Shown here: in pieces, positions 5,800-17,264 of the stretch | Numbering within the stretch: the stretch's first letter is position 1 | Layout of the letters: every line of letters starts with the position of its first letter | NCBI GenBank assembly: GCA_021796315.1 | Contig: JAJYOH010000035.1 | Coordinates: 1-21,039, forward strand | DNA length: 21,039 bases | Reading direction: 5' to 3' | DNA from: Chloroflexota bacterium | Lineage (GTDB): Bacteria > Chloroflexota > Anaerolineae > Anaerolineales > Villigracilaceae | Notes under the pieces: generated by a model | What the model was told of the DNA's origin: nothing | Databases searched by the model: none | The model's input: only the letters and a program-made list of their open reading frames with translations | Position numbers and translations under genes: made by a program

Positions 5800-8298
5800 A
5801 TGACTCGACTAAAATTACTTTTTATTGTTATTGTCGCGTTACTTGTAACGGCTTGTGCGACTGCAGCGCCAACTCCCACACCTGTTGCGAAAATAAATTC
5901 CAGTCCGTACGATGGACTTTGGGAAGGCAAGGGGCTGGCGCAGGATGGACGCGAAGTTACGGTCAAGTTCACGGTCCAGGATGGGGCGATTTCATCATTT
6001 ATTTATTCCTATCCCAAAGTTGACCACAGCATCTTGTGTACCAATCTTGACTACACGGTCATTGCTGCTGATTCCCAGCCTCGCATCACAAACAATTCAT
6101 TTTCCCAAACCTTCGGCTCTGACCTGACTGCTGACGGGACATTCGCTTCTTCAAGTTCGGCGACCGGGCATATCTCCGTCAATTGGCAGGGACGTTACAC
6201 CAGCGGCTGTGTTGCAACTTTGCAGGCGGCATGGACCGCGACCAAACAGCAGGTTGCGCAAACGACCACGTCTGCTCCCGTCACAATTGCGTGGTGCGGA
6301 AAGAATGTTGATTGTGGCGGCTTGCTTTTTCAACTGCTGATCTTCGGACTGGTCAACGGCGCGATCCTGGCGTTGAACGCCATCGGCGTGACGGTCATCT
6401 ACAGCACGGTTCGCACGCTGAACCTTGCGCACGGCGATGTCTTTGCCATGACGACTGCGCTGGTAACCTCCACTATAAATTTTGTCGGCATCAATCAAAA
6501 CTGGCCGCCTGCCACGCGCATCTTTGCATTGTGCGGAGTATTGCTGGCTTCGATAATTTTCGGCGCGTTGTTGAGCGTCGGCGTGGAAGAACTGGCCTTC
6601 CGCCCGTTTCGCGGACGCTCGAAGCTGGCTCCGCTCATCGCTTCGCTTGGCATTTCATTTATTCTGTTTCAAGGTTCATTGGTTTGGCGCACCATGCAGG
6701 CTTCGTTCATTCGCGGGGAACATCGCAGCGTGCCGGGATTGAACGAAGTTCCAACGGATGGAATTCCGAATTTTTTGCCGCCTGGAAATCTTCTTTCAGG
6801 GAAAGTGGTCCTGCAATTTTCGGATTTGTTCGTTTTTGTGGCCGCGATTCTTTTCGTGTTGGTCACAACTTATATTTTGCAAAAAACAAAAACGGGACAG
6901 GCCATCCGCGCGGTGGCGCAAAATGAAGAGCTGGCGCAGATCGTCGGCGTGCCGCGCGATGGAGCCATTTTGCGCGCCTTTGCTTTGGGTGGAGCGTTGG
7001 CAGGCGCGGCAGGCTTTGTCTTTGCGTTGTATTACTCGCGTCCATTCGGACAGGCTGGCGCGGAAAGCGGCCTCGTCGCCTTCGCCGCTGCGCTTTTGGG
7101 CGGTATCGGCAGTCCACTCGGCGCGTTGATCAGTGGATTGACTCTTGGCGTGGTCGGTTCGTTCAGCGATTATTTTTTGACATCTTCATGGACGCCAGTG
7201 CTTTTACTTGGCTTGCTGACTGCGCTTCTCGTCTGGCGGCGCGGCGGTTTCGGCGGGGAGTCTTTAACGGAACAGGATTCGGCGCGCGACTCGGTTGTTT
7301 TGACGGCGCCCACTTCAAGCGCCGCCCTGAGCGCTCAGTCGAAGGGTCCGAGAATGAAGCGGTTTCTCATCGCGCTTTTGATCGCGCTTATTCCTCTTCC
7401 GCTCATCATGTCTGCCTTCAACACTGGCGGCCAAAGTCTGTTGACCGGCGTCGGCATTTTTATTTTGTTGACGCTCGGTCTCAATCTTTTGCTTGGGCTG
7501 GCAGGCGTGCTCGATCTTGGATACGCCATGAGCTTTGCGATTGGCGGTTATGCCGCGGCTTTGCTCCGGCTCGATTTCACTCTTGTAGTTTTGATCAGCG
7601 CGGGAGCGGCGGCGTTGTTTGGTTTGCTGAAAGGAGGATTGGCAAGCCGACTGCGCGGCGATTATCTGGCGGTTGCGACTCTTGCGCTGGGTTTGATGAC
7701 CCAGCAGGCCATCGTGAACACGCCGACTTTGACCGGCGGCGCGAACGGACTCAGCGCCCTGCCGCCGCCGCATCTTTTTGGACTGGCGCTGTCTGCGCCG
7801 TCCGCACAGGTTTATCTCGTCCTGGGGTTTGTGCTTCTCGCCGCGCTCGCCAGCGGACGGTTGATCTCGTCCCGAACTGGCCGCGCCTGGATCGCCGCGT
7901 CTGAAGATGAATCTGCTGCCGGTTCCTTCGGCGTGGACACGGCCCGTTATCGTTTGTTGGCTTTTGTGCTTTCGTCTGCGCTGGCAGGAATCGCGGGCGC
8001 GTTATATGCCAGGCTTTATGGTTATATCGACCCTGACATTGCCGCTTTCCATGTTTCGGCCATGATGCTGGCGATGGTGGTCCTGGGCGGCGCAGGCAGT
8101 GTTGGTGGGGCAGTGCTGGGAACAGTGTTGATTTACAGTTACGACAAAATTATCGTCGGACAAATAGCTGCGTTGATAGCTTTGCTCTGGCCGCAGGGCT
8201 TATACATTGGCATGGTCCCCGATATTCGCGGTACGAACTTTTTTAACTTTGGAATTGCGCTGTATCTGACGGTGTTATGGCGGGCGAGAAAAAAGTGA
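5800..8298 (+). CDS. Fused lipoprotein - LivH-like - LivM-like branched-chain amino acid ABC permease
   Basis: An 832-residue single frame with three parts. Residues 1-19 are a lipoprotein signal (hydrophobic core, lipobox VTAC, Cys19). Residues 20-160 form an extracytoplasmic domain with a Thr/Pro-rich start and SPYDGLWEGKG. From about residue 175 it matches LivH-type permeases (STVRTLNLAHGDVFAMT, then VGVPRDGAILRAFALGGALAGAAGF). From residue 519 (MKRFLIALLIALIPLP) it matches LivM-type permeases (GLAGVLDLGYAMSFAIGGYAA, LRGDYLAVATLALG, TGGANGLSALPPP). HAAT-family importers normally use LivH and LivM as separate subunits plus LivF, LivG and a binding protein, none of which is nearby. An upstream in-frame TTG (5782) is possible, but ATG 5800 starts the signal peptide cleanly. 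An internal ATG at 7354 follows AAGGG by 7 bp, so LivM could also be made separately. Confidence 0.85.
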   Translation: MTRLKLLFIVIVALLVTACATAAPTPTPVAKINSSPYDGLWEGKGLAQDGREVTVKFTVQDGAISSFIYSYPKVDHSILCTNLDYTVIAADSQPRITNNSFSQTFGSDLTADGTFASSSSATGHISVNWQGRYTSGCVATLQAAWTATKQQVAQTTTSAPVTIAWCGKNVDCGGLLFQLLIFGLVNGAILALNAIGVTVIYSTVRTLNLAHGDVFAMTTALVTSTINFVGINQNWPPATRIFALCGVLLASIIFGALLSVGVEELAFRPFRGRSKLAPLIASLGISFILFQGSLVWRTMQASFIRGEHRSVPGLNEVPTDGIPNFLPPGNLLSGKVVLQFSDLFVFVAAILFVLVTTYILQKTKTGQAIRAVAQNEELAQIVGVPRDGAILRAFALGGALAGAAGFVFALYYSRPFGQAGAESGLVAFAAALLGGIGSPLGALISGLTLGVVGSFSDYFLTSSWTPVLLLGLLTALLVWRRGGFGGESLTEQDSARDSVVLTAPTSSAALSAQSKGPRMKRFLIALLIALIPLPLIMSAFNTGGQSLLTGVGIFILLTLGLNLLLGLAGVLDLGYAMSFAIGGYAAALLRLDFTLVVLISAGAAALFGLLKGGLASRLRGDYLAVATLALGLMTQQAIVNTPTLTGGANGLSALPPPHLFGLALSAPSAQVYLVLGFVLLAALASGRLISSRTGRAWIAASEDESAAGSFGVDTARYRLLAFVLSSALAGIAGALYARLYGYIDPDIAAFHVSAMMLAMVVLGGAGSVGGAVLGTVLIYSYDKIIVGQIAALIALLWPQGLYIGMVPDIRGTNFFNFGIALYLTVLWRARKK
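7324..7348. repeat. Interspersed repeat at the LivH/LivM junction
   Basis: GCCCTGAGCG (7324-7333) through TCGAAGGGTC (7339-7348) is the CCTGAGC...GAAGGG repeat type also seen in dnaE (368-392). It sits 5 bp before the codon that would be the natural LivM start (ATG 7354). In this frame it encodes ALSAQSKGP. Its GAAGGG end could act as a ribosome binding site for LivM. Confidence 0.6.
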
Positions 8299-8352: not shown

Positions 8353-9489
8353 TTATTTTTGTTGAGATTGTCGCACCTCAATAAGAATGATTATTGTAAT
8401 GGCAATCAGGATCATAAATGCCCCCAGCGCCGGGGTTAATAGAATTGAGTAAAACTGCATGAAGAAGATGCCCCAGAGTGGTCCTAAAAGGGCGGTGATG
8501 AAGAACATCCAGCCATCAGCGACATTCAATCGTCCATAGACAAGCCATAGGTTATAGGGGACGAGGCGCGCCGCCATGTTTCCCGTAATCAATGGCAGAA
8601 CTGCGGCAGCCAGTTCAAACCAAAGAGGCGATGCGATGCGCAGGTGGTATCGAAATAAGCTTATCCCTAATACCAAAAAATATCCTATGTTAAACCCAAT
8701 TCCCGCGCCTTGATAAACGTAAAGACGGGTCGCCCTTGCATTGCCCAATTTTCGCTTTTCCCAAAAAGGATTATCTTTTGTGTTTGTTAGCAGTCCAATC
8801 AAAAGAGGAATTGCCACCGACGCGGCTATAAATAGCCTTATATCCAGAGATGCCTGTTCCTCATTTGCAAATGACAGGCGCAGGGACGGTGCAGTCAATA
8901 GCCATGTCAATAACCATATCCAGATCCAAAGAATAGCCTGGGCGGCTAACGATGTTGACCAAGGGTCTGCCGCGTTTCGCCATAAAGCCACCAGCACGCG
9001 CGGCCAGGTCGGTGGCGGTCCATCTTGCGCTTTGACGATCAAACCGCGCAACTCTTCATTCGAACCAATTAATAATTGATCCAGCAGGGATTGATATGAA
9101 GGATCTGGTGTGCGTGTGATTGAAGGCAAGTCAATCTTGTCTGAGGAAAAGATCTGTTTCATCTCCGTCGGATTCAATGCCCGGTAATTGCCCGCCTCCA
9201 AAAGCTCGTTTGCTTCTTTAAGAACCCTAATACCGCCATGTTCATGCAACACTTTTAGCAGGCACACCAATACGCGGCGGTCATCCGCGTGGATTTTGCT
9301 GGCGCCACGTTCCCAATCACTAATAGCAGCAGCGGTAAAGCCGCGCGTGCCAAGCTCCACACCCAGTAATTCACCCAGGCGACCCTGGCTTAAGATACCT
9401 CTCCTATCTTTTGGATATTTACATTCCTGGCGAAAGATACGAAGCAAATTTCCAAATTCGTTCACGAATTCATTCCTTGATTCAAGCAT
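8353..9489 (-). CDS. XRE-type helix-turn-helix protein with C-terminal multi-span membrane domain
   Basis: 378 residues if started at ATG 9489, the first ATG in a frame that is open back to a TTG at 9642. The TTG would add 51 residues and overlap the comP end by 28 bp. Residues about 8-80 form a Cro/C1-type helix-turn-helix (FGNLLRIFRQEC, LSQGRLGELLGV, AAAISDWERGASKI). A linker follows, and then about six hydrophobic segments from residue 183 to 371 (for example ILWIWIWLLTWLL and FMILIAITIIILI), ending in a short basic tail. This is the layout of a membrane-tethered transcription factor. It lies directly downstream of the ComP-like kinase on the same strand and may be co-transcribed with it. 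No clear Shine-Dalgarno supports either start, so the start is uncertain. The target is unknown. Confidence 0.7.
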   Translation of the reverse strand: MLESRNEFVNEFGNLLRIFRQECKYPKDRRGILSQGRLGELLGVELGTRGFTAAAISDWERGASKIHADDRRVLVCLLKVLHEHGGIRVLKEANELLEAGNYRALNPTEMKQIFSSDKIDLPSITRTPDPSYQSLLDQLLIGSNEELRGLIVKAQDGPPPTWPRVLVALWRNAADPWSTSLAAQAILWIWIWLLTWLLTAPSLRLSFANEEQASLDIRLFIAASVAIPLLIGLLTNTKDNPFWEKRKLGNARATRLYVYQGAGIGFNIGYFLVLGISLFRYHLRIASPLWFELAAAVLPLITGNMAARLVPYNLWLVYGRLNVADGWMFFITALLGPLWGIFFMQFYSILLTPALGAFMILIAITIIILIEVRQSQQK

Positions 9490-9614: not shown

Positions 9615-11879
9615 CTAGGAATTTGCATTCCTCTCGTTCCAAGTGATATGCACCTCTGTTCCCATCCTGGGCGAAGACACGAACTTGATGTTGGCTTCGA
9701 TCATGGCAGCGCGTTCGACGATCCCCGCCAAACCGAAGTGTCTGCTGGCAAGCAGGCTGTGCAGTTCCAGTCCGTTTGCAATTTCAAAGCCAACCCCGTC
9801 ATCTTCGATCTTGAGCTGGACCGTCTGCGGGGCCAGTATGCCTGAGATCATGACTTGTTTCGCTTTTGCGTGATGGAGCGCATTCTCGCAGGTTTGTTGC
9901 ACGATCCGAAATATATGCTGCTCAACGTCGGCAGGATAGCGTTGTTTACTGTGGTTCAAATTCACTGTTACGTTGACGGCATCCTTGTTGCGCTCCATTA
10001 AGTTTTCGGCCATTTCTTCGAGGCCGTCTTTCAAACCGTAATCGAGCATGGGTGGACGCAGGTCGCTCACGATCTCGCGCAGGCGTTGTGTCACTGTCTC
10101 ATAGGTGCTTTGAAAATTCTCGGGCACGGCGTCTGGGTTGATGTTCAAGCGCAGAACCGCCAGTTCGTTCAACACTGAATCGTGCAATTCAAGCGATAGG
10201 CGCATTCGTTCCTGTTCGTAACGGTCGATGTTGGCTTTGTACATGGCTTTCAGGCGTTCGGTTTGCAGGATGTTGCTCAAGGCAACGGCGGTCTCATTGG
10301 CAAGCGCTTGCAGAACGTTGATCTCGGCCTGCGAATAAAGATCGTCCGGGTCGTGCCGGCCAAACAACCAGATACCAATTAAATCATCGCCAATTCTTAG
10401 CGGCAGGGCCAGGCGCACCCACGCATAACTTTCGCTTTGATGAGATTCAAGGGGACGATATTTTTCGGCCCAGCTTAGGAGTTCCTCGAGCTCTTTTTTA
10501 TCGGGGACCCGCTCCTCGGTCAGATCGGAAGCGAACAGGGTTTTTGCGGAACTGTTTTCAAATTCGATAAAGGCGAATTGGCGGATCAGCAAACTCGGCA
10601 GGACATCATCCTTCAAAAGTTGTAACAAGTTCGACAGGATAATTGTGCTGGTAATGCGCTTTGAATAAATCTCGACCAGGTTGTGGGGCGGCAGGCGAAC
10701 TCCCAGCAAACGTTTCTCCACAAAAGTCTCGAAGCGCGGAAATCCCCAAATGGATACCAAAGTGGCAAGTACCGCGGCGAAAGAGCCGATGAGCAATGTG
10801 TCATCGGGAGAAGTGAGCATACTGTCGGTCAGCGCCAGCAAGGGCACTCCAATGATTCCCATCAGGATGATGAAGAAATAAAGAGAGATGATGCGGTTGG
10901 CGCGCATTTCTGAGCTTCCCAATTGGCGGCGGTAGGCGGCATACAGATAGCCGATGGGAATGAGCGGAAAGCTTAACAGCATCAAGGCGCTGAATCTGGA
11001 TGATGCTTCGTAATAAATCCCGACTACTGCGAGAACGATCAGAACGGACATTTCCAGAATGGTTGTCGTAAGAAGCAGGCGCAGATCCCGGCGTGTGTCC
11101 GGCTGGCGGATTGCATGCACGATCAACAAAACCAGACTGCCGAGAATGGCGATCAGAAAACCGATAAAGTAAAGACTCTGAGAAAAGAGTTGAAGGGCCT
11201 GGGCGATGGCCAATGCCAACGCGATTCCGTAGACAGCCCAGACCAGCAGGCGTGGCAACTTCCCCAGCGGACGAGGAAACACCCAATGTAAATGTAAATA
11301 AATGGGAACGCTCAACCAGATCGCCATTCGCAGGATAACGGCGCTATACCAAATATGATAGTTGGACGTGCCGCCGCCAACACCCAACCAAATGGCAGTC
11401 AGAAAATTGAAGCCGGATAGCAGCCACCAGCGATCATCCTTCGGACGAAGGGACAGAAAGGTTACTGTGCCAGCCATCCAAAAGACATAGGCCAAAAACC
11501 ATTCGGAAAATATTTGTTCATTTACTTCACCCGGGTTACGTCCGGGCAGTTTCCACGGAATGGTGATGGTTTTGCCATCACGTTCCACCATAACCGGTAC
11601 GACAGTTCCCGGCTTGACCCCTTTGAAGAAAGTCTTTGTCAGATCGTTGTGGAAGGCATTCCAGGTCAGCGGCCCGATTTGCACCAGCCGGTCGTTCTCC
11701 ATGAGAGTTGGGCCTTCTTGATTAACAAAGACAGAGTAAATCGTGCCGTCAGCTTCCCAGGCAAATCCATAAGGGTGCTGAAAAATCTTTGCGTAGCTGT
11801 AGATCAACAATATTCCCAGGATGATCCACGGCAAGGTGAGTTCCACGAGCCTTTTGAGTTTTTCCTGACGGCTGTTCAT
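9615..11879 (-). CDS. comP: ComP-like multi-span sensor histidine kinase
   Basis: A 754-residue sensor kinase, close in length to B. subtilis ComP (about 770). One membrane helix (residues about 12-30) is followed by an extracytoplasmic PDZ-like segment (about 35-115; MENDRLVQIG, GVKPGTVVPVMVERDGKTI). About nine more membrane helices extend to about residue 385. A GAF-like cytoplasmic segment (about 415-540) is followed by a HisKA_3 dimerisation domain with phospho-acceptor His566 in LSLELHDSVLNELA. The HATPase_c domain has an N-box around Asn666 (TCENALHHA), a G1 box (EDDGVGFE) and a C-terminal GLAGIVERA. The single helix, PDZ-like loop and helix-bundle order is the ComP layout. The gene is divergent from the small comX-like gene, as expected for a receptor next to its signal. 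GAGG precedes ATG 11879 by about 9 bp. The ComP name rests on architecture plus context, since many NarX/DegS-type kinases share the catalytic half. Confidence 0.85.
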   Translation of the reverse strand: MNSRQEKLKRLVELTLPWIILGILLIYSYAKIFQHPYGFAWEADGTIYSVFVNQEGPTLMENDRLVQIGPLTWNAFHNDLTKTFFKGVKPGTVVPVMVERDGKTITIPWKLPGRNPGEVNEQIFSEWFLAYVFWMAGTVTFLSLRPKDDRWWLLSGFNFLTAIWLGVGGGTSNYHIWYSAVILRMAIWLSVPIYLHLHWVFPRPLGKLPRLLVWAVYGIALALAIAQALQLFSQSLYFIGFLIAILGSLVLLIVHAIRQPDTRRDLRLLLTTTILEMSVLIVLAVVGIYYEASSRFSALMLLSFPLIPIGYLYAAYRRQLGSSEMRANRIISLYFFIILMGIIGVPLLALTDSMLTSPDDTLLIGSFAAVLATLVSIWGFPRFETFVEKRLLGVRLPPHNLVEIYSKRITSTIILSNLLQLLKDDVLPSLLIRQFAFIEFENSSAKTLFASDLTEERVPDKKELEELLSWAEKYRPLESHQSESYAWVRLALPLRIGDDLIGIWLFGRHDPDDLYSQAEINVLQALANETAVALSNILQTERLKAMYKANIDRYEQERMRLSLELHDSVLNELAVLRLNINPDAVPENFQSTYETVTQRLREIVSDLRPPMLDYGLKDGLEEMAENLMERNKDAVNVTVNLNHSKQRYPADVEQHIFRIVQQTCENALHHAKAKQVMISGILAPQTVQLKIEDDGVGFEIANGLELHSLLASRHFGLAGIVERAAMIEANIKFVSSPRMGTEVHITWNERNANS

Positions 11880-11904
11880 ATGGTTGCATCCTCACAGCGA
11901 AATA

Positions 11905-11931
11905 AAAGGAGGTGAATTTTTTATGGCGTGA
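11905..11931 (+). promoter_or_regulatory. Perfect Shine-Dalgarno leading to a two-codon ORF upstream of comX
   Basis: AAAGGAGGTGA (11905-11915), which is fully complementary to the 16S rRNA 3' end, is followed after 7 bp by ATG GCG TGA (11923-11931). No longer frame starts here. It lies in the comP/comX divergent region. It may be a minimal upstream ORF if transcription starts upstream of it. On the opposite strand, the comP leader would carry CACCTCC. Confidence 0.35.
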
Positions 11932-11948
11932 ACAGGAAAATATTCTTT

Positions 11949-11975
11949 TTGCGGCTGTATCTATGAGTCTATAAC
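11949..11975 (+). promoter_or_regulatory. Candidate comX promoter
   Basis: TTGCGG (11949-11954) and TATAAC (11970-11975) are separated by 15 bp, which is shorter than ideal. Transcription would start about 18 nt before the comX ATG, leaving the Shine-Dalgarno AGGAG (11986-11990) in the leader. Confidence 0.35.
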
Positions 11976-11999
11976 ATCAACTAAAAGGAGAGATCTAAA

Positions 12000-12146
12000 A
12001 TGTCAAACATGACGAAATTTCAAATGGCGCTTAATGCTTCCTCTGGGAACCAAAATCCATACCTGAAAATGCTGAAAGCTCTCACGAAGGTCAGCCCAAC
12101 TCAATTGGTGGCGATGACCAGCGGCCTGGGCTGGCAACCCTGGTGA
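12000..12146 (+). CDS. comX: ComX-like prepheromone peptide
   Basis: A 48-residue peptide beginning MSNMTKFQMALN and ending SGLGWQPW. AAAGGAG (11984-11990) lies 9 bp before ATG. ComX precursors are about 55-75 residues and give a short C-terminal peptide in which a Trp, usually 3-5 residues from the end, is prenylated by ComQ. Here Trp45 is fourth from the end and Trp48 is last, next to a ComQ-type gene and opposite a ComP-type kinase. There is no Sec signal peptide, which agrees with ComX. The region before the tail (residues about 20-40, LKMLKALTKVSPTQLVAM) can form an amphipathic helix. The alternative is a prenylated RiPP precursor with another role. The identification is based on size, tail and context; small peptides give weak homology signals. 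Confidence 0.75.
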   Translation: MSNMTKFQMALNASSGNQNPYLKMLKALTKVSPTQLVAMTSGLGWQPW

Positions 12147-12176
12147 AATGATAAAAACAGCACGAGTATAGCACGA

Positions 12177-12200
12177 CTGGTCGGGGTTTCCCCCGACCAG
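12177..12200 (+). terminator. Strong hairpin after comX (terminator or attenuator)
   Basis: CTGGTCGGGG and CCCCGACCAG form a perfect 10-bp stem with a 4-nt loop (TTTC), 30 bp after the comX stop. Only TTT follows, so it is not a classic rho-independent terminator. It may cause partial termination or protect the comX mRNA 3' end, giving more comX than comQ transcript. Confidence 0.6.
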
Positions 12201-12220
12201 TTTCAGGCTCTCTGGGGTTT

Positions 12221-12340
12221 GCCGTGATTCTGTACACGGATTGAACGGATTCCACAGAATCTCACGGAAAAGCCTTTTAAAAAATCCGCGTTGATCTGTG
12301 TCCGTCCGTGTAATCCGTGTTCAAAAGGTTTAATCACGGC
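12221..12340. repeat. 120-bp MITE-like inverted-repeat element between comX and comQ
   Basis: Perfect 9-bp ends GCCGTGATT (12221-12229) and AATCACGGC (12332-12340) flank long imperfect arms. The left arm is 12234-12268 (begins ACACGGATT) and the right arm is 12285-12320 (ends AATCCGTGT). The centre is the A/T-rich 12269-12284. The arms carry the TCCGTGTAATCCGTGT-like words that I recognise as common in interspersed bacterial intergenic repeats. No ORF lies inside. Its RNA would fold into one long hairpin before the comQ ribosome binding site. Confidence 0.7.
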
Positions 12341-12372
12341 GATTCCCAATGAGCCCAGTTTTAGGAGAAAAG

Positions 12373-13347
12373 ATGGATATTTACATTTCAGTGGTTGATT
12401 ATCTTTCACGCCTGCCTGTTCTTCAGGGGTGGTCAGATGCACTCGTTCTCCTTGAGAAATTTGCATCCACGCGACCGCGCGATTGGCAGTTACCCATTTT
12501 GGCCTGTGAGGCGCTCGGTGGTACGAGAGCACAGGCCATCCCGGCCTCGGCAGCTTTGGCCTCCGCTCAAATTGGGATTATCTTGATCGATGACATGTTG
12601 GATTTGGATCCTCGAGGAGAATACCATCAGATTGGCGAAGGGCAAGCCGCTAATTTTGCAGCATCTTTTTTGTCGGCGGGATCGGAAGCTATTTTGCAGG
12701 GCGATGCGAATCCAGAGATCAAGCTGGCTGGAGTCCAGAGTCTTAACCGGATGATCATCGATACCGCACTTGGACAATTTTTAGATGGTCAGACCCCTCA
12801 GGACGAAATTGCGTATTGGCGCGTGGTCGAAACCAAAAGCGCCCCATTTTTTGGAACTGCGATCTATTTGGGCGCCTTGTTCGGGGGGGCATCAGGCGAT
12901 ACGCTTGAGCGAATGGAACAATTTGGCCGCCTGTATGGGGAGATCATTCAAATTCACGACGACGTAAACGACACCATGGCGGAACCTGCAAACCCGGATT
13001 GGATACAGGGGCGTTCTCCGTTGCCAATCCTTTTTGCGCAACTGGTTGAACATGCCGAACGGTCACGTTTCCTGGAACTGCGCCATGACATATCGAATAT
13101 TGATGCCCTGCGCGATGCACAGCAAATTTTGATACGTTGCGGGGCGGTCAGTTATTGTGTGGATGAGCTGCTAAAGCGATATCGCACTGCACAATCCATC
13201 CTGGATGCGATTCACCTTGTTCGTGGCGAGATACTTGGCTCGTTGCTGCATACCACCGTTGCGCCCGTCTTAAAACTTTTTGAGATGCTGGGGAGCGAGC
13301 CGCTGGATCGGGCTACCTTCTTGGAACAGTTGGAGGTTCGGGAGTGA
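12373..13347 (+). CDS. comQ: ComQ-like isoprenyl diphosphate synthase / pheromone prenyltransferase
   Basis: A 324-residue member of the all-alpha trans-isoprenyl diphosphate synthase fold, close in length to ComQ (about 300). The first Asp-rich motif is DDMLD at residues 73-77 (LIDDMLDLDPRG). The second is DDVND at residues 196-200 (IIQIHDDVNDTM). Lys155 in ETKSAPFFGTA matches the conserved diphosphate-binding Lys of the family. In ComQ these motifs bind Mg and the prenyl diphosphate used to modify the ComX Trp. The start was set at ATG 12373 because AGGAG lies 5 bp upstream; an in-frame ATG at 12349 has no ribosome binding site. The gene follows comX on the same strand after 226 bp of repeat-rich spacer. 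Its 3' end overlaps the convergent comA by 35 bp. Alone it could be a plain polyprenyl synthase, and the call as ComQ depends on the neighbours. Confidence 0.85.
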   Translation: MDIYISVVDYLSRLPVLQGWSDALVLLEKFASTRPRDWQLPILACEALGGTRAQAIPASAALASAQIGIILIDDMLDLDPRGEYHQIGEGQAANFAASFLSAGSEAILQGDANPEIKLAGVQSLNRMIIDTALGQFLDGQTPQDEIAYWRVVETKSAPFFGTAIYLGALFGGASGDTLERMEQFGRLYGEIIQIHDDVNDTMAEPANPDWIQGRSPLPILFAQLVEHAERSRFLELRHDISNIDALRDAQQILIRCGAVSYCVDELLKRYRTAQSILDAIHLVRGEILGSLLHTTVAPVLKLFEMLGSEPLDRATFLEQLEVRE

Positions 13348-14002
13348 TCAATCCCAGTTGTTTGGCTTTGGCGAGCGCGGCCGCGCGGGTCTGGACCTCG
13401 AGGCGGGCGTAGGCCCCCGAAAGCAGGTTGCGCACCGTTGAGTCTGACACTCCCATCTTGTCCGCCAATTCAGTGGTCTTGCTGTCAGGGTAGGCCTCGC
13501 ATAATGAAAGCGCCTCCAACTGGCGCGGGCTTAGGAGGCTGCCGCCCTGCGCGATCTGATATTTTTGGTAGAGTTCACCCGCTCGTTGGCTGAAGTAAAT
13601 GCCTCCCTCCGCCACCGAGATAATGACGTTCCCCAAATTGCGGATCGTGGATGGGTCATCCTTGATGATATAACCGTTGGCCCCGGCTTCCATCACGGCG
13701 CGGATCAGTCCACGCTCGGCGAACATACTGATGATCAGAATTTTTAGTTCAGGATAATTTTGGCGCAGTTGAGGGATGATGTGCAGGATCGGGTAAGGGT
13801 TGTAGTTATCGGGGGAAGTTGGAACGCTTATGTCGAGTAAAAGAACATCTGTGGGGTGTTCCAGCAGGGCTTGATCGAGTTCGTTGGCGTACGATATGGT
13901 TGCCGCGATCTCGATGTTCGGAATGCCGCTTAAACGAAAGACATAACCGTCTACGATGCTTTGATGGTCGTCCAGTATGGTCACTTGGATTTTTCGGGAC
14001 AT
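13313..14002 (-). CDS. comA: ComA-like NarL/LuxR-family response regulator
   Basis: A 229-residue two-domain regulator. The receiver domain occupies residues 1-125, with acidic pocket D11/D12 (VTILDDHQS), phospho-acceptor Asp57 (DVLLLDISVP), a switch Ser in LIISMFAE and Lys in GYIIKDD. A LuxR-type helix-turn-helix lies at about residues 155-215 (LSPRQLEALSLCEAYPDSKT, MGVSDSTVRNLL). This is the partner class for HisKA_3 kinases such as the ComP-like protein here, and ComA belongs to the same family. GAGGGAG lies about 9 bp before the ATG. The gene converges on comQ and the last 35 bp of the two overlap. The assignment to this system is by context, since many NarL-type regulators look similar. 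Confidence 0.85.
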   Translation of the reverse strand: MSRKIQVTILDDHQSIVDGYVFRLSGIPNIEIAATISYANELDQALLEHPTDVLLLDISVPTSPDNYNPYPILHIIPQLRQNYPELKILIISMFAERGLIRAVMEAGANGYIIKDDPSTIRNLGNVIISVAEGGIYFSQRAGELYQKYQIAQGGSLLSPRQLEALSLCEAYPDSKTTELADKMGVSDSTVRNLLSGAYARLEVQTRAAALAKAKQLGLITPEPPTVPRR

Positions 14003-15100: not shown

Positions 15101-15172
15101 AGAGAACATTAATGTAAGCTGTTTCAGTTAATCGTTCTCAATTGGGTGACAGTAAGGAGATTGAGTAACAAC

Positions 15173-16261
15173 ATGGAAACAATGCGAACAAGGGTTCGGA
15201 AGTCAACCGGCGTAAAGGCTGCTCTCATTTTGTCTATTTTAGTATTACTTATATTGGGGGCTTGTCAGCCTACAAATCAACCACCACCATATGTAACTTG
15301 GACGCCTTCCCCATCAGTAACCCCTTCACCAACACCGCGCATTTGTCCCCCTGATCAAAAAATCGCATCAGCAAATGAACTAAAGTTGCATACAGCTTTT
15401 ATTGCTATATTGTTTGATCAAGACTCCGTCAAGAGTAATACAATGAAATATCTAGATGGGCGGACGACAGGCGATGCATTTGCATTTATCAAAGATGTCT
15501 TACCAGAGTTGTTGGGGCCAGGAGATCAGTATTCGATATTTCGATTAGGTTACAGAAGCTATGAAGCGGCCAGAGTAGATAGATACAGCTCAAAGATTAT
15601 GGAGTCGCCTCAAATTGGGGCTACTCCAGCGCCTTATGCCATTTTGCCTTCAATTACACCCCCAATTATATATACTGATGAAGCTGTATTGCAAAAAATA
15701 AAAGATGAGAATGCATATAAAACTGCTGTTGCTGAACAACAAGCAACTGCCACCCAGCAGGATTTTGAATATCACTGCAACATAGCTGCCTTTGATAATA
15801 TGTTTGCGGCAACAGCAACAATGTGGAGTGTCACGCAGACAGCAGTTTCAACAGAAATCTCATCCAAACTTGATGAAGCTTCCACGCCACCTGCTGTTGC
15901 CTTGCAAACACCTTTTGCAGACACCGTGTATGAGGGGCTGTCGGAAGCAACTGTCGACTTTGAAGCTCAATGTAGTCACTACGATAAATGTGCCTTGCTT
16001 ATTATTGACGACTTATATGATTGGCGTAATACAACCCCTGATCACAAAATTCCCGATTTACATATTAATCTCAAAAACGTAGAAATAATTTCAATAATGC
16101 CAAATTGTACAGATATATATCAACCTAGTTGTAAAAATACGCAGAATCTTTGGACAGATGAGCTAAAAGGTTTTGGCGCCAAAAGTGTGGAATATGTTAA
16201 CGGAAATGGTAACGAAAATAGTCTTGAAGAATATCTAATAGAAACAATAGGAGGCAGATAA
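15173..16261 (+). CDS. Secreted lipoprotein with degenerate von Willebrand A-like domain
   Basis: 362 residues from ATG 15173, with AAGGAG (15154-15159) 13 bp upstream. A basic start and hydrophobic core end in lipobox LGAC with Cys31, followed by a Pro/Ser/Thr-rich tether (about residues 32-60). After this, TAFIAILFDQDSVKSNTMKY resembles the first strand and metal-site region of a vWA domain, although the usual DxSxS is changed. The C-terminal half contains CALLIIDDLYDW and VEIISIMPNC...WTDELKGFGAKSV, like the later strands of a vWA fold. A long insert with an Ala/Thr/Gln-rich helix lies between (about 190-225). It is very AT-rich compared with secA or dnaE. It is followed after 1 bp by a membrane protein, so the two are probably one operon. 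The function is unknown; it may display a binding domain at the cell surface. Confidence 0.65.
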   Translation: METMRTRVRKSTGVKAALILSILVLLILGACQPTNQPPPYVTWTPSPSVTPSPTPRICPPDQKIASANELKLHTAFIAILFDQDSVKSNTMKYLDGRTTGDAFAFIKDVLPELLGPGDQYSIFRLGYRSYEAARVDRYSSKIMESPQIGATPAPYAILPSITPPIIYTDEAVLQKIKDENAYKTAVAEQQATATQQDFEYHCNIAAFDNMFAATATMWSVTQTAVSTEISSKLDEASTPPAVALQTPFADTVYEGLSEATVDFEAQCSHYDKCALLIIDDLYDWRNTTPDHKIPDLHINLKNVEIISIMPNCTDIYQPSCKNTQNLWTDELKGFGAKSVEYVNGNGNENSLEEYLIETIGGR

Positions 16262-16262
16262 A

Positions 16263-17264
16263 ATGAATGCTATAGGTCAAATCGTATACAATCTTCTCAA
16301 CTCGCAAGTCTTTTGGGTACTGCTTCTCGTTTGGGCCTTTATTTGTATCGCATGGGTGGAAAGATGGAAACCTTTGTTTGAACGATTGGGGAAATTATTT
16401 TTGAAGCCTGTAATATTTAAGCCGGCCTCTATATCTGATGATATCCCATTTTATCCACGGAGTTTTATGGAGGAAAGTGCCAATGGCCTCCGGGACACTT
16501 TAAGAAAACCCTTTGCGGATATTATCAAAGTGTTTTCTGGTTGGATTTCTAATCAATATCGACTTGTATATGATAAAGACCATCCATTCAGAACACTAGG
16601 TCATCTCCTTTTTTTTGGAAGCTTTTTGTTTTTTGTCCTTGCTGATGCAATTGCGGTTGCTAATACACTTCAAGTATTGGGCTATTGGTCTGGTACTATG
16701 CCGCCAATATTGGCAAGGTTTGACCTTGCGGTTTTTGGCGGATCTCTATTAGCATTAATAATTGGTATAGTTCATGTTTCTGAGATCCAGAGTGCCGACA
16801 GTGAATTTTCTCGTTGGTCAGAAAGAGACACTCGAACCAAAGCTTTGGCAAGGGCATTTTCCTTTCTTGTTGCATTGCTATCTCTCATAACCTTGATTGC
16901 TTGGGCCCTCTTTAGGCTTATTGAGCTGGGAAAATTGCAGTCGAATCCAATTTTGGACACCATACTTAATTGGATCTTGTTTGGTTTAGTGCCCATTAAT
17001 AGCGCATTAGGAGCAGCCATTACTTTTTCTGAAGCGATGATAGGATTTGTGGTCGCAGGTGTATTAATTGAGTGGATACTGATTGGAATTTTGTATTTGA
17101 TTGATTATGCCGTAACGATTCTGGGAACTATACTTCCGTTTGTTTTTGATTTAGTATACAGGCTTGTATACATTGTTGTCGATATACTTCAGTGGTTTAT
17201 AACAACACCTGTTCAGCTAGTTATGTTGCCTTTCAGGTTGATTGCTAAGACTTTTAGTAATTAG
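16263..17264 (+). CDS. Multi-span membrane protein of unknown function
   Basis: 333 residues; ATG lies 1 bp after the lipoprotein stop and the preceding AGGAGGC is its ribosome binding site. One membrane helix is at residues 14-32 (VFWVLLLVWAFICIAWVERW). A soluble region of about 85 residues follows, and then about five helices (LLFFGSFLFFVLADAIAVA, LAVFGGSLLALIIGIVHV, AFSFLVALLSLITLIAWALF, and two to three near the C-terminus up to LVYIVVDIL). I recognise no catalytic motif or family. It has the same low GC as the lipoprotein gene and presumably works with it at the membrane. Confidence 0.65.
   Translation: MNAIGQIVYNLLNSQVFWVLLLVWAFICIAWVERWKPLFERLGKLFLKPVIFKPASISDDIPFYPRSFMEESANGLRDTLRKPFADIIKVFSGWISNQYRLVYDKDHPFRTLGHLLFFGSFLFFVLADAIAVANTLQVLGYWSGTMPPILARFDLAVFGGSLLALIIGIVHVSEIQSADSEFSRWSERDTRTKALARAFSFLVALLSLITLIAWALFRLIELGKLQSNPILDTILNWILFGLVPINSALGAAITFSEAMIGFVVAGVLIEWILIGILYLIDYAVTILGTILPFVFDLVYRLVYIVVDILQWFITTPVQLVMLPFRLIAKTFSN

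What the first reader, a model, noticed from the sequence alone, without database searches (positions are those of the whole stretch)
9615..14002. Complete ComQXPA-like peptide quorum-sensing locus in a probable non-Bacillota genome
Four adjacent genes match the four roles: a multi-span HisKA_3 kinase with N-terminal PDZ-like loop and nine further helices (ComP-like), a 48-residue peptide with a C-terminal Trp tail, a prenyl synthase with both Asp-rich motifs (DDMLD, DDVND), and a NarL-type regulator. Established knowledge: in Bacillus, ComQ prenylates a Trp of ComX, the peptide is sensed by ComP, and ComA responds. I know this system mainly from Bacillota. The lineage here (probably Chloroflexota) is my inference, so novelty depends on confirming it.
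Basis: partly seen in the sequence, partly recalled or inferred. Interest (0 to 1): 0.95.

Follow-up and report, generated by a model that had tools for sequence, protein, structure and literature searches.

The report
Chloroflexota ComQXPA-like prenyl-peptide quorum sensing
Uncultured Chloroflexota bacteria carry a conserved set of four genes (a tiny tryptophan-tailed peptide, an enzyme of the prenyl-synthase fold, a membrane sensor related to ComP of Bacillus and a gene regulator) that is predicted to work as a lipid-tagged peptide quorum-sensing system, a kind of signalling so far described, as far as we could read, in Bacillota.

Summary
The four genes are real and at the stated coordinates (synthase start best set at 12373). 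The lineage is Anaerolineae-like Chloroflexota. A synthase-based scan fetched 38 related loci. In 36 of 38 sequences with usable upstream DNA (window included), a small ORF ending in W-x-x-W lies just upstream of the synthase, against 2.5% of shuffles, 0 of 38 antisense and 1 of 25 housekeeping paralogues. The sensor is ComP-type: its N-terminal module alone aligns to a real ComP (hhalign E 4e-6; controls 0.047 or worse). The synthases form one clade apart from housekeeping enzymes, and 42 of 42 lack the IPP-binding GKRxRP motif. One distant relative fuses a synthase domain and a ComP-type kinase in one ORF. A hairpin stem lies between peptide and synthase in 23 of 24 group-1 loci. Against strict ComQXPA membership: no ComX (PF05952) similarity, an intact DDxxD second motif (reported unsuitable in ComQ), different gene order. 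Prenylation, secretion and density sensing are untested. Verdict: a ComQXPA-like system, a new variant of a known kind, in Chloroflexota and some Acidobacteriota; the one census consulted reports none outside Firmicutes.

The parts
9615..11879 (-). ComP-type sensor histidine kinase (754 aa): TM1, PDZ-like loop, further TM helices, GAF-like, HisKA_3, HATPase_c
   Evidence: Pfam; AF2 model; full-length colinear hhalign to Anoxybacillus ComP; sensor-only hhalign with controls
11544..11777 (-). PDZ-like extracytoplasmic loop of the kinase (about residues 35-112)
   Evidence: strands in model; PDZ_2 matches 6 of 22 family members at E up to 0.1, not this member itself; PDZ models above Pfam cut-off in the fused relative L131
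11904..11914 (+). AAAAGGAGGTG, part of a conserved element in the divergent promoter gap (CACCTCC on the HK strand); the adjoining TATAAT-like box is degenerate in the window
   Evidence: TATAAT-like box plus CACCTCC in 16 of 23 group-1 gaps and 0 elsewhere in 543,678 bases; the window itself is one of the 7 without the full pattern
11983..11992 (+). ribosome-binding site of the peptide gene (AAAAGGAGAG)
   Evidence: sequence
12000..12146 (+). pheromone precursor peptide, 48 aa, ends W45-Q-P-W48; predicted prenylation on Trp45 (codon 12132-12134)
   Evidence: M4, F7, W45, W48 invariant in 24 aligned group-1 peptides; a single Trp remains in L024, L078, L081, L084, L103, L104
12175..12202 (+). 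intercistronic hairpin (12-pair stem) between peptide and synthase; in the window 2 of 40 shuffles of the long gap reach this stem length
12373..13347 (+). ComQ-like prenyltransferase of the isoprenoid-synthase fold (324 aa)
   Evidence: PF00348; family motifs; tree; AF2 model pLDDT 92.5; Foldseek
12589..12603 (+). first aspartate-rich motif DDMLD (short FARM loop, DPRG follows)
12958..12972 (+). second aspartate-rich motif DDVND, preceded by QIH
13313..14002 (-). NarL/ComA-type response regulator, convergent with and overlapping the synthase 3' end by 35 bases
8353..9465 (-). conserved neighbour: weak HTH_31 N-terminus plus hydrophobic segments, possible second output regulator (start judged from relatives; the listed ORF opens at 9642)
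   Evidence: in 17 entries, window and the identical pair L015/L016 included; Pfam HTH_31 below cut-off

Best explanation
This is a four-gene peptide-signalling cassette with a ComP-type sensor kinase, predicted to work like Bacillus ComQXPA: the synthase-fold enzyme would prenylate a C-terminal tryptophan of the small peptide, and the cut, exported product would be sensed by the kinase, which would phosphorylate the regulator. Shown by sequence: the linkage of the four genes across relatives, the conserved Trp tail, the enzyme's departure from chain-elongating synthases (IPP motif lost, first Asp-rich motif kept), the ComP-type sensor module, and the hairpin between peptide and enzyme genes. 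Inferred: the hairpin would let the precursor be made in excess of the enzyme; the first Trp of W-x-x-W is the likely prenyl site, because in single-Trp relatives the remaining Trp follows a Gly or sits where the first one does; the donor is GPP, FPP or GGPP; export and cutting need functions outside the window's cassette (an ABC exporter and an M50 peptidase lie near three related group-2 cassettes); the regulator acts on the cassette's own promoters and on other genes, perhaps a polyketide synthase in two relatives.
For: Peptide-synthase linkage with shuffle and antisense controls and a housekeeping control; in 10 of 11 further genomes a peptide with Trp in the last few residues, 4 of them by the W-x-x-W criterion, the others seen by reading the frames, the eleventh with only 475 bases upstream. 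Reciprocal search: 5 strong peptide hits in 298 genomes, each beside a family synthase (all five are also rows of the query; 3 weak hits at E 0.005-0.008 lie in long ORFs). GKRxRP 0/42 versus 22/25. Family clade SH-aLRT 100. Ord1, called a Trp farnesyltransferase in PMC13290415, is among the matched solved structures (rank 10, 38, 4). Sensor homology to ComP with negative controls. 14 of the 15 strongest ComP-type sensors in 298 genomes sit beside a synthase (several are rows of the query). Of 23 second-tier sensors 19 were examined: 15 have a PF00348-type neighbour or domain (13 by Pfam; one by motif; one by profile). Enzyme-receptor fusion L131. Stem of 9 or more pairs in 23 of 24 group-1 gaps versus 55 of 960 shuffles. 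ABC exporter and M50 peptidase near L028, L032, L034.
Against: PMC5331326 (section 7 read) says DDxx(D) in the second motif is unsuitable for Trp prenylation by ComQ, and an Asn-to-Asp change drastically lowered activity; all 42 family enzymes have DDxxD. PMC13290415 (section 9 read) puts the first SARM Asp in the Trp-binding network of PalQ/Ord1, so this is not decisive. ComQ does not group with the family (long branches). The peptide shows no relation to ComX. The PDZ loop alone gives no significant match to ComP. L024, L078, L081, L084, L103, L104 have one Trp only. G106 has peptide and synthase but no sensor hit and no kinase in the next 1.4 kb; L018 lacks a kinase within 8 kb; G101 has kinase and regulator but no synthase hit; three second-tier sensors (G151, G087, G044) show no synthase motif beside them and G100 is undecided. 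Group-2 kinases have HisKA, not HisKA_3, in the four scanned, and a regulator next door was confirmed by Pfam only in L025. No expression or chemical data.
Confidence: 0.8

Rival explanations
1. A prenylated RiPP antibiotic with an autoregulatory two-component system: the peptide is a product that acts on neighbours and the kinase senses it mainly to induce production.
For: Group-3 precursors have leader-like N-termini (MKDL..DPdFR..); a polyketide synthase lies beside two cassettes; an ABC exporter and M50 peptidase lie near three group-2 cassettes; the hairpin layout resembles RiPP operons (recalled).
Against: In group 1 no transporter, peptidase or immunity-like family recurs among the clustered neighbours with three or more loci, judged by eye and partly by Pfam; the sensor is ComP-type.
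Confidence: 0.1
2. The synthase is a diverged isoprenyl diphosphate synthase for lipids or carotenoids under control of the two-component system, and the small ORF is an unrelated regulator or leader peptide.
For: Both Asp-rich motifs are intact and the names given by the sources are geranylgeranyl, octaprenyl or polyprenyl synthase.
Against: IPP motif missing in 42 of 42; 12 of 12 genomes checked already hold canonical synthases; W45, W48, M4 and F7 are the invariant peptide residues; fusion to the sensor in L131.
Confidence: 0.06
3. A private, non-secreted device: the prenylated peptide stays in the membrane of the producing cell and acts on its own kinase in cis, so there is no density sensing.
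For: No exporter gene in the window's cassette; a fused enzyme-kinase exists (L131).
Against: ComX of Bacillus is secreted without an exporter in its locus (recalled); a genome with kinase and regulator but no synthase hit, G101, makes most sense if signal comes from others; the residues between the two Trp vary strongly between loci, as expected of pherotypes; ABC exporter near three group-2 cassettes.
Confidence: 0.1
4. Horizontal import of a Bacillus comQXPA locus.
For: Same four roles; 27% identity to Anoxybacillus ComP over 270 residues of the kinase part and 24% to ComA.
Against: Family and ComQ are separate deep branches; dnaE beside the cassette in 7 entries and secA in 4; no PF05952.
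Confidence: 0.02

Closest known systems
ComQXPA of Bacillus and relatives (references here: L070 Anoxybacillus plasmid, L069 B. velezensis plasmid)
   Same: four roles; enzyme of the isoprenoid-synthase fold with FARM and without GKRxRP (4 of 4 ComQ); ComP-type sensor with a PDZ-like loop; NarL/ComA-type regulator; short precursor ending in a Trp tail
   Different: peptide unrelated in sequence (W-x-x-W); intact DDxxD SARM; HK and RR on the opposite strand to peptide and enzyme; X before Q; hairpin between them; different phyla
PalQ / PalX of Paenibacillus alvei and the ChrPC prenyltransferase domain (PMC10853753 passages; PMC13290415 passages and section 9)
   Same: trans-IDS-like Trp prenyltransferases; a Gln just before SARM (also kept in the family, 42 of 42, but in canonical synthases too); PalQ acts on a C-terminal Trp
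   Different: no ComP-type sensor described in the passages read; sequences were not compared here
Ord1, farnesyltransferase of free Trp (PDB 9v4g)
   Same: same fold; sequence E 3.1e-7 to the window enzyme, Foldseek E 8.4e-7; ordinary prenyl synthases match as well or better
   Different: acts on free Trp; no peptide partner
housekeeping polyprenyl synthases of the same genomes
   Same: PF00348, both Asp-rich motifs
   Different: GKRxRP kept in 22 of 25 and long FARM loop in 20 of 25; separate clade; W-x-x-W ORF upstream in 1 of 25

Membership tests
ComQXPA (Bacillota) | precursor matches ComX, PF05952 | tested here: not met
   no hit for the window peptide, while L070 ComX scores 72.4 bits and L069 ComX 24.6, just under the cut-off of 25; profile comparison probability 1.2%
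ComQXPA (Bacillota) | Trp within 5-10 residues of the C-terminus of a short precursor (52-73 aa in B. subtilis, PMC4008528 passages) | tested here: met
   48 aa (slightly shorter), W45 and W48; both invariant in 24 of 24 aligned
ComQXPA (Bacillota) | ComQ: FARM kept, pseudo-SARM NDxxx or GDxxx (PMC5331326 section 7) | tested here: not met
   FARM met 42/42, but SARM is DDxxD in 42/42; NDxxx occurs only in two more distant Chloroflexota relatives, L130 and L135
ComQXPA (Bacillota) | ComP: multi-TM sensor with PDZ loop, HisKA_3, HATPase_c | tested here: met
   PDZ_2 seen in 6 of 22 relatives, not in the window member; ComP architecture from PMC9620489 passages
ComQXPA (Bacillota) | ComA: receiver plus LuxR-type HTH | tested here: met
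   PF00072 over cut-off, GerE 22.3 bits just under 23.5; 24% identity to ComA
ComQXPA (Bacillota) | order Q-X-P-A on one strand | tested here: not met
   P(-) X(+) Q(+) A(-) in the window; X-Q-P-A on one strand in L071 and L072
ComQXPA (Bacillota) | Trp is prenylated and the peptide acts between cells | not testable with these tools
   needs mass spectrometry and a reporter
housekeeping isoprenyl diphosphate synthase | IPP-binding GKRxRP and clustering with known paralogues | tested here: not met
   0/42; separate clade
PalQ/ChrPC-type RiPP prenyltransferases | sequence cluster membership | not tested
   no PalQ or ChrPC sequence was fetched

The most novel reading that the evidence does not exclude
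ComP-type sensors mark a family of prenyl-peptide signalling that runs through Chloroflexota, reached Acidobacteriota, has at least three gene architectures, includes a single-protein enzyme-receptor fusion and a receiver-only genome, and of which Bacillus ComQXPA is one branch; the W-x-x-W peptides are a new pheromone class made by a prenyltransferase that kept its second Asp-rich motif.
Probability: 0.5. Interest if true: 0.93.

Novelty: new variant of a known kind. Interest (0 to 1): 0.87.

Why it matters
The 2014 census (PMC4008528, abstract and passages seen) found comQXPA-like loci in no phylum but Firmicutes, and PMC8895600 (passages seen) grants Chloroflexi only the kinase-regulator pair. 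Six searches for such systems outside Bacillota listed no paper whose title or start of abstract describes one; these are capped listings (for example 20 of 124 and 12 of 102) of a library of open-licence papers without preprints, so it is not proof of absence. If the prediction holds, uncultured Chloroflexota use prenylated peptides to talk, a peptide code can be read from metagenomes (the residues between the two Trp), new Trp-prenylating enzymes become available, and an enzyme fused to its receptor lets signal-receptor pairing be tested in one protein.

Tried and rejected
First genome scan with the single synthase found 35 pattern hits and no confirmed relative; the alignment-based scan worked. 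PF05952 in 100 class genomes: nothing, but no control genome rang either, so it shows little. Rfam around the peptide: two weak matches below the gathering score, ignored. PHROGs for the peptide: E 0.016 to a family of unknown function, ignored. Foldseek of the kinase: the 50 listed matches are kinase-type or multi-domain sensor structures; none is named a PDZ protein. Considered and rejected: chance ORF; housekeeping synthase; NarX/NarL-type sensor (the kinase part scores 47-75 bits against NarX/NarQ models with cut-offs of 578 and 553; the sensor is ComP-type); import from Bacillus. Rows dropped before counts: L033 (no upstream DNA); L036 (synthase gene broken), L037, L038 (cut); L049, L059, L066 housekeeping rows from the tree, though they are in the 25. 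The housekeeping control used 800 bases and ORFs of 40-130 aa, slightly different from the 700 bases. L015 and L016 are the same sequence in two records and both count; L107 carries the peptide of L026 and was not counted as new. The element's 16 gaps include L016, which my script marked as outside only because its starts were not in the table. Nine sensor hits with E between 1e-18 and 1e-10 and four second-tier ones were not examined. The peptide profile sees group 1 only: it missed the 10 other strong synthase loci.
Full report
What is there. Pfam gives HATPase_c, HisKA_3 and GAF-like matches for the kinase, PF00348 for the synthase, a receiver plus LuxR-type HTH for the regulator, and nothing credible for the peptide. 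The organism names shown are Chloroflexota or Anaerolineales; of 38 records, 36 are Chloroflexota by title and two Acidobacteriota (L030 by title, L029 as Thermoanaerobaculum). Best local alignments of DnaE and SecA to those of related loci are 70-83% and 72-74% identical; no tree of them was built.

The peptide is tied to the synthase. A scan with synthase motifs only fetched 38 loci. Within 700 bases upstream, a same-strand ORF of at least 40 aa with W-x-x-W in its last 30 residues occurs in 36 of 38 sequences examined (window included, L033 left out for lack of DNA; L015 and L016 are identical), against 2.5% of 1140 dinucleotide shuffles and 0 of 38 antisense. Upstream of 25 housekeeping PF00348 genes of the same genomes, with nearly the same criterion, it is 1 of 25. 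The two misses carry a W-x-W (L037) and a single Trp (L024). In 11 further genomes (L078, L081, L082, L084-L087, L103-L105, L108) 10 show a peptide with Trp in its last few residues: four W-x-x-W, one W-x-W, five a single Trp; the last six were found by reading the frames, without a control; L105 has only 475 bases upstream. In group 1, M4, F7, W45 and W48 are invariant in 24 aligned peptides, while the two residues between the tryptophans vary freely. A peptide profile run over 298 class genomes gave 5 strong hits, each beside a family synthase; all five are also rows of the profile, so only the lack of strong orphans is new, and the profile does not see group 2.

The enzyme is not a housekeeping synthase. 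In 12 of 12 genomes checked there are canonical polyprenyl synthases besides the divergent one. The IPP-binding GKRxRP motif is found in 0 of 42 family enzymes and 22 of 25 housekeeping ones (two of the three exceptions also lack DDxxD and are probably wrong ORFs); the shortened FARM (DDxxDxDPRG) in 38 of 42 versus 0 of 25; DDxxD SARM in 42 of 42. The family forms one clade, SH-aLRT 100, apart from 22 housekeeping rows, five intermediate ones, two ComQ and two group-3 enzymes; ComQ branches are long and the tree is a quick one without bootstraps. The Acidobacteriota rows L029 and L030 nest among Chloroflexota group 2, which suggests transfer. The predicted fold (pLDDT 92.5) is that of isoprenoid synthases; Ord1 is among the matches, ordinary prenyl synthases rank above it.

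The sensor is ComP-type. Two true comQXPA references were taken from plasmid records. The whole kinase aligns colinearly with Anoxybacillus ComP over 676 columns (probability 99.8). With the kinase part cut off, the sensor module still aligns over 303 columns at E 3.9e-6, probability 87; reversed and shuffled ComP and five other membrane proteins give E 0.047 or worse, probability 1.1 or less. The multi-helix part alone gives E 2e-4, probability 45-48; the PDZ loop alone gives no significant match to ComP. PDZ_2 is seen in 6 of 22 family kinases, as PDZ is in ComP (PMC9620489 passages).

Sensor and enzyme travel together. A sensor profile hits 41 of 298 class genomes, 47 places. Of the 15 strongest (E below 1e-83, several being rows of the profile), 14 lie beside a family or group-3 synthase; the exception, G101, keeps kinase and regulator with no synthase hit in the genome. 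Of 23 weaker hits (E 1e-50 to 6e-24), 19 were examined: 15 have a PF00348-type neighbour or domain (13 by Pfam, one by motif, one by profile), 3 show none by motif scan (G151, G087, G044), 1 is undecided (G100), and 4 were not examined; nor were 9 still weaker ones. In L131 one 1067-aa ORF holds PF00348 (29.1 bits, cut-off 27), three PDZ models above the Pfam cut-off, GAF, HisKA_3 and HATPase_c. In the other direction, 13 of 15 strong synthases have the sensor beside them; G035 is at a contig end, and G106 has peptide and synthase but no sensor hit and no kinase in the next 1.4 kb.

Architectures. Group 1 (window, L001-L021, L023, L031, L036): kinase(-), peptide(+), synthase(+), regulator(-), with a second regulator and a displaced kinase in L031 and no kinase found in L018. 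Group 2 (L022, L024-L030, L032-L035 and others): peptide, synthase, kinase mostly on one strand, with a HisKA kinase domain in the four scanned; a regulator next door was confirmed by Pfam only in L025. Group 3 (L071, L072, most of L123-L136): leader-like peptide, synthase, kinase, followed by a regulator in L071 and L072 (Pfam), the nearest in layout to Bacillus; two of its enzymes, L130 and L135, have the ComQ-type NDxxx pseudo-SARM, and GKRxRP is absent in 16 of 16.

Export and cutting. The window's cassette has no transporter or peptidase gene. Near three related group-2 cassettes (L028, L032, L034) lie an ABC exporter (ABC_membrane plus ABC_tran; 356-2293 bases from the synthase) and, beyond it, a HEXXH membrane protein that is an M50 peptidase by Pfam in the two scanned. 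They are candidates for export and cutting there; the three loci are close kin, so this may be mere neighbourhood.

Non-coding parts. The gap between peptide and synthase holds a stem of at least 9 pairs (G-U allowed) in 23 of 24 group-1 loci against 55 of 960 shuffles (5.7%); stems are 10-16 pairs, end just before the synthase ribosome-binding site in most loci, and differ in sequence between loci. L031 has none; the L018 fold is no stronger than shuffles (z 0.0); in the window's long gap 2 of 40 shuffles reach the stem length. In group 2 it is 8 of 11 against 62 of 440, weaker evidence. In the divergent gap a TATAAT-like box followed by CACCTCC on the kinase strand occurs in 16 of 23 group-1 gaps and nowhere else in 543,678 bases; the window is one of the seven without the full pattern and keeps only the CACCTCC part. 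Its role is open: kinase promoter plus operator, or an RNA element.

How it most likely works. Precursor in excess of enzyme (hairpin, inferred); prenyl transfer to one Trp, probably the first (inferred); cutting and export by other functions (inferred); binding to the PDZ/multi-helix sensor (inferred by ComP homology); phosphotransfer to the NarL-type regulator (inferred); outputs unknown. A polyketide synthase follows the cassette in L018 and L031 (Pfam on L018 only), a parallel to surfactin control by ComA, but only in that pair of close kin.

What speaks against it. PMC5331326 reports that DDxx(D) is unsuitable for Trp prenylation in ComQ; PMC13290415 assigns the first SARM Asp a role in Trp recognition in PalQ/Ord1. 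The chemistry must be tested. What was seen of each paper: PMC4008528 (abstract, passages), PMC8895600 (passages), PMC10853753 (passages), PMC13290415 (passages, section 9), PMC9620489 (passages), PMC5331326 (passages, section 7).

Distribution. Family synthases: 15 of 298 class genomes at E below 1e-80, 6 of 400 phylum genomes, 4 of 199 genomes of the phylum of G011, the Thermoanaerobaculum MAG's genome, hence Acidobacteriota. The first two samples overlap in part and MAGs are incomplete.

Noticed in passing
L131 619-3822 (G283:C52): Single 1067-aa ORF fusing a PF00348 domain to a ComP-type PDZ sensor kinase.
   Followed up: partly
L142 4744-7974 (G101:C19): Kinase and regulator of group-1 type without peptide or synthase in the fetched 13 kb, and no synthase hit in the genome: possible receiver-only strain.
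   Followed up: partly
L086 (G106:C1): Peptide and family synthase with no sensor hit and no kinase within the next 1.4 kb.
   Followed up: partly
L028 2566-5708, L032 2015-5067, L034 4373-7620: ABC exporter and HEXXH (M50) membrane peptidase near three related group-2 cassettes; candidate export and cutting functions.
   Followed up: partly
L018 and L031, from about 10601: Modular polyketide synthase beside the cassette.
   Followed up: partly
L003, L008, L009, L014, L015, L016, L019, L036: Recurring neighbour module: large TPR/BTAD regulator (8 loci), a 90-95 aa protein of unknown family (7 loci) and an HD-domain protein.
   Followed up: partly
window 11904-11914 and the same gap in other group-1 loci: Conserved TATAAT-N-CACCTCC element on the kinase strand (AAAGGAGGTG on the other), resembling the 16S rRNA 3' end (recalled); role unknown.
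   Followed up: partly
L145 (read on the reverse strand) 6344-6556 and 6731-6943: Two near-identical 70-aa ORFs ending KNCAW after a group-3 cassette; RiPP-precursor-like.
   Followed up: no
L029 9219-9422; L030 5150-5960: These two Acidobacteriota cassettes have a second W-x-x-W peptide between synthase and kinase.
   Followed up: partly
L130, L135: Chloroflexota group-3 enzymes with the ComQ-type NDxxx second motif (QLVNDFNG, QLINDLNG).
   Followed up: partly
window 12222-12345: Repeat-like DNA between hairpin and synthase (gap 229 bases; most other group-1 gaps are 46-94, L018 168 and L006 259).
   Followed up: no
window 8353-9465: HTH_31-like protein with hydrophobic segments next to the kinase, conserved in 17 entries.
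   Followed up: partly
window 15146-17264: Pair of genes (lipoprotein-like and membrane protein) conserved between the cassette and secA in L009, L013 and L021; no Pfam assignment.
   Followed up: no
L139 (CP065518.1, labelled Stenotrophomonas rhizophila): Contains a Lysinibacillus-like comQ-comX-comP-comA set beside transporter-like genes; the record may be mislabelled or contaminated.
   Followed up: no
L036 7995-8970; L069 5191-7492: Synthase gene of L036 is broken into two frames; comP of L069 is annotated in two pieces.
   Followed up: no
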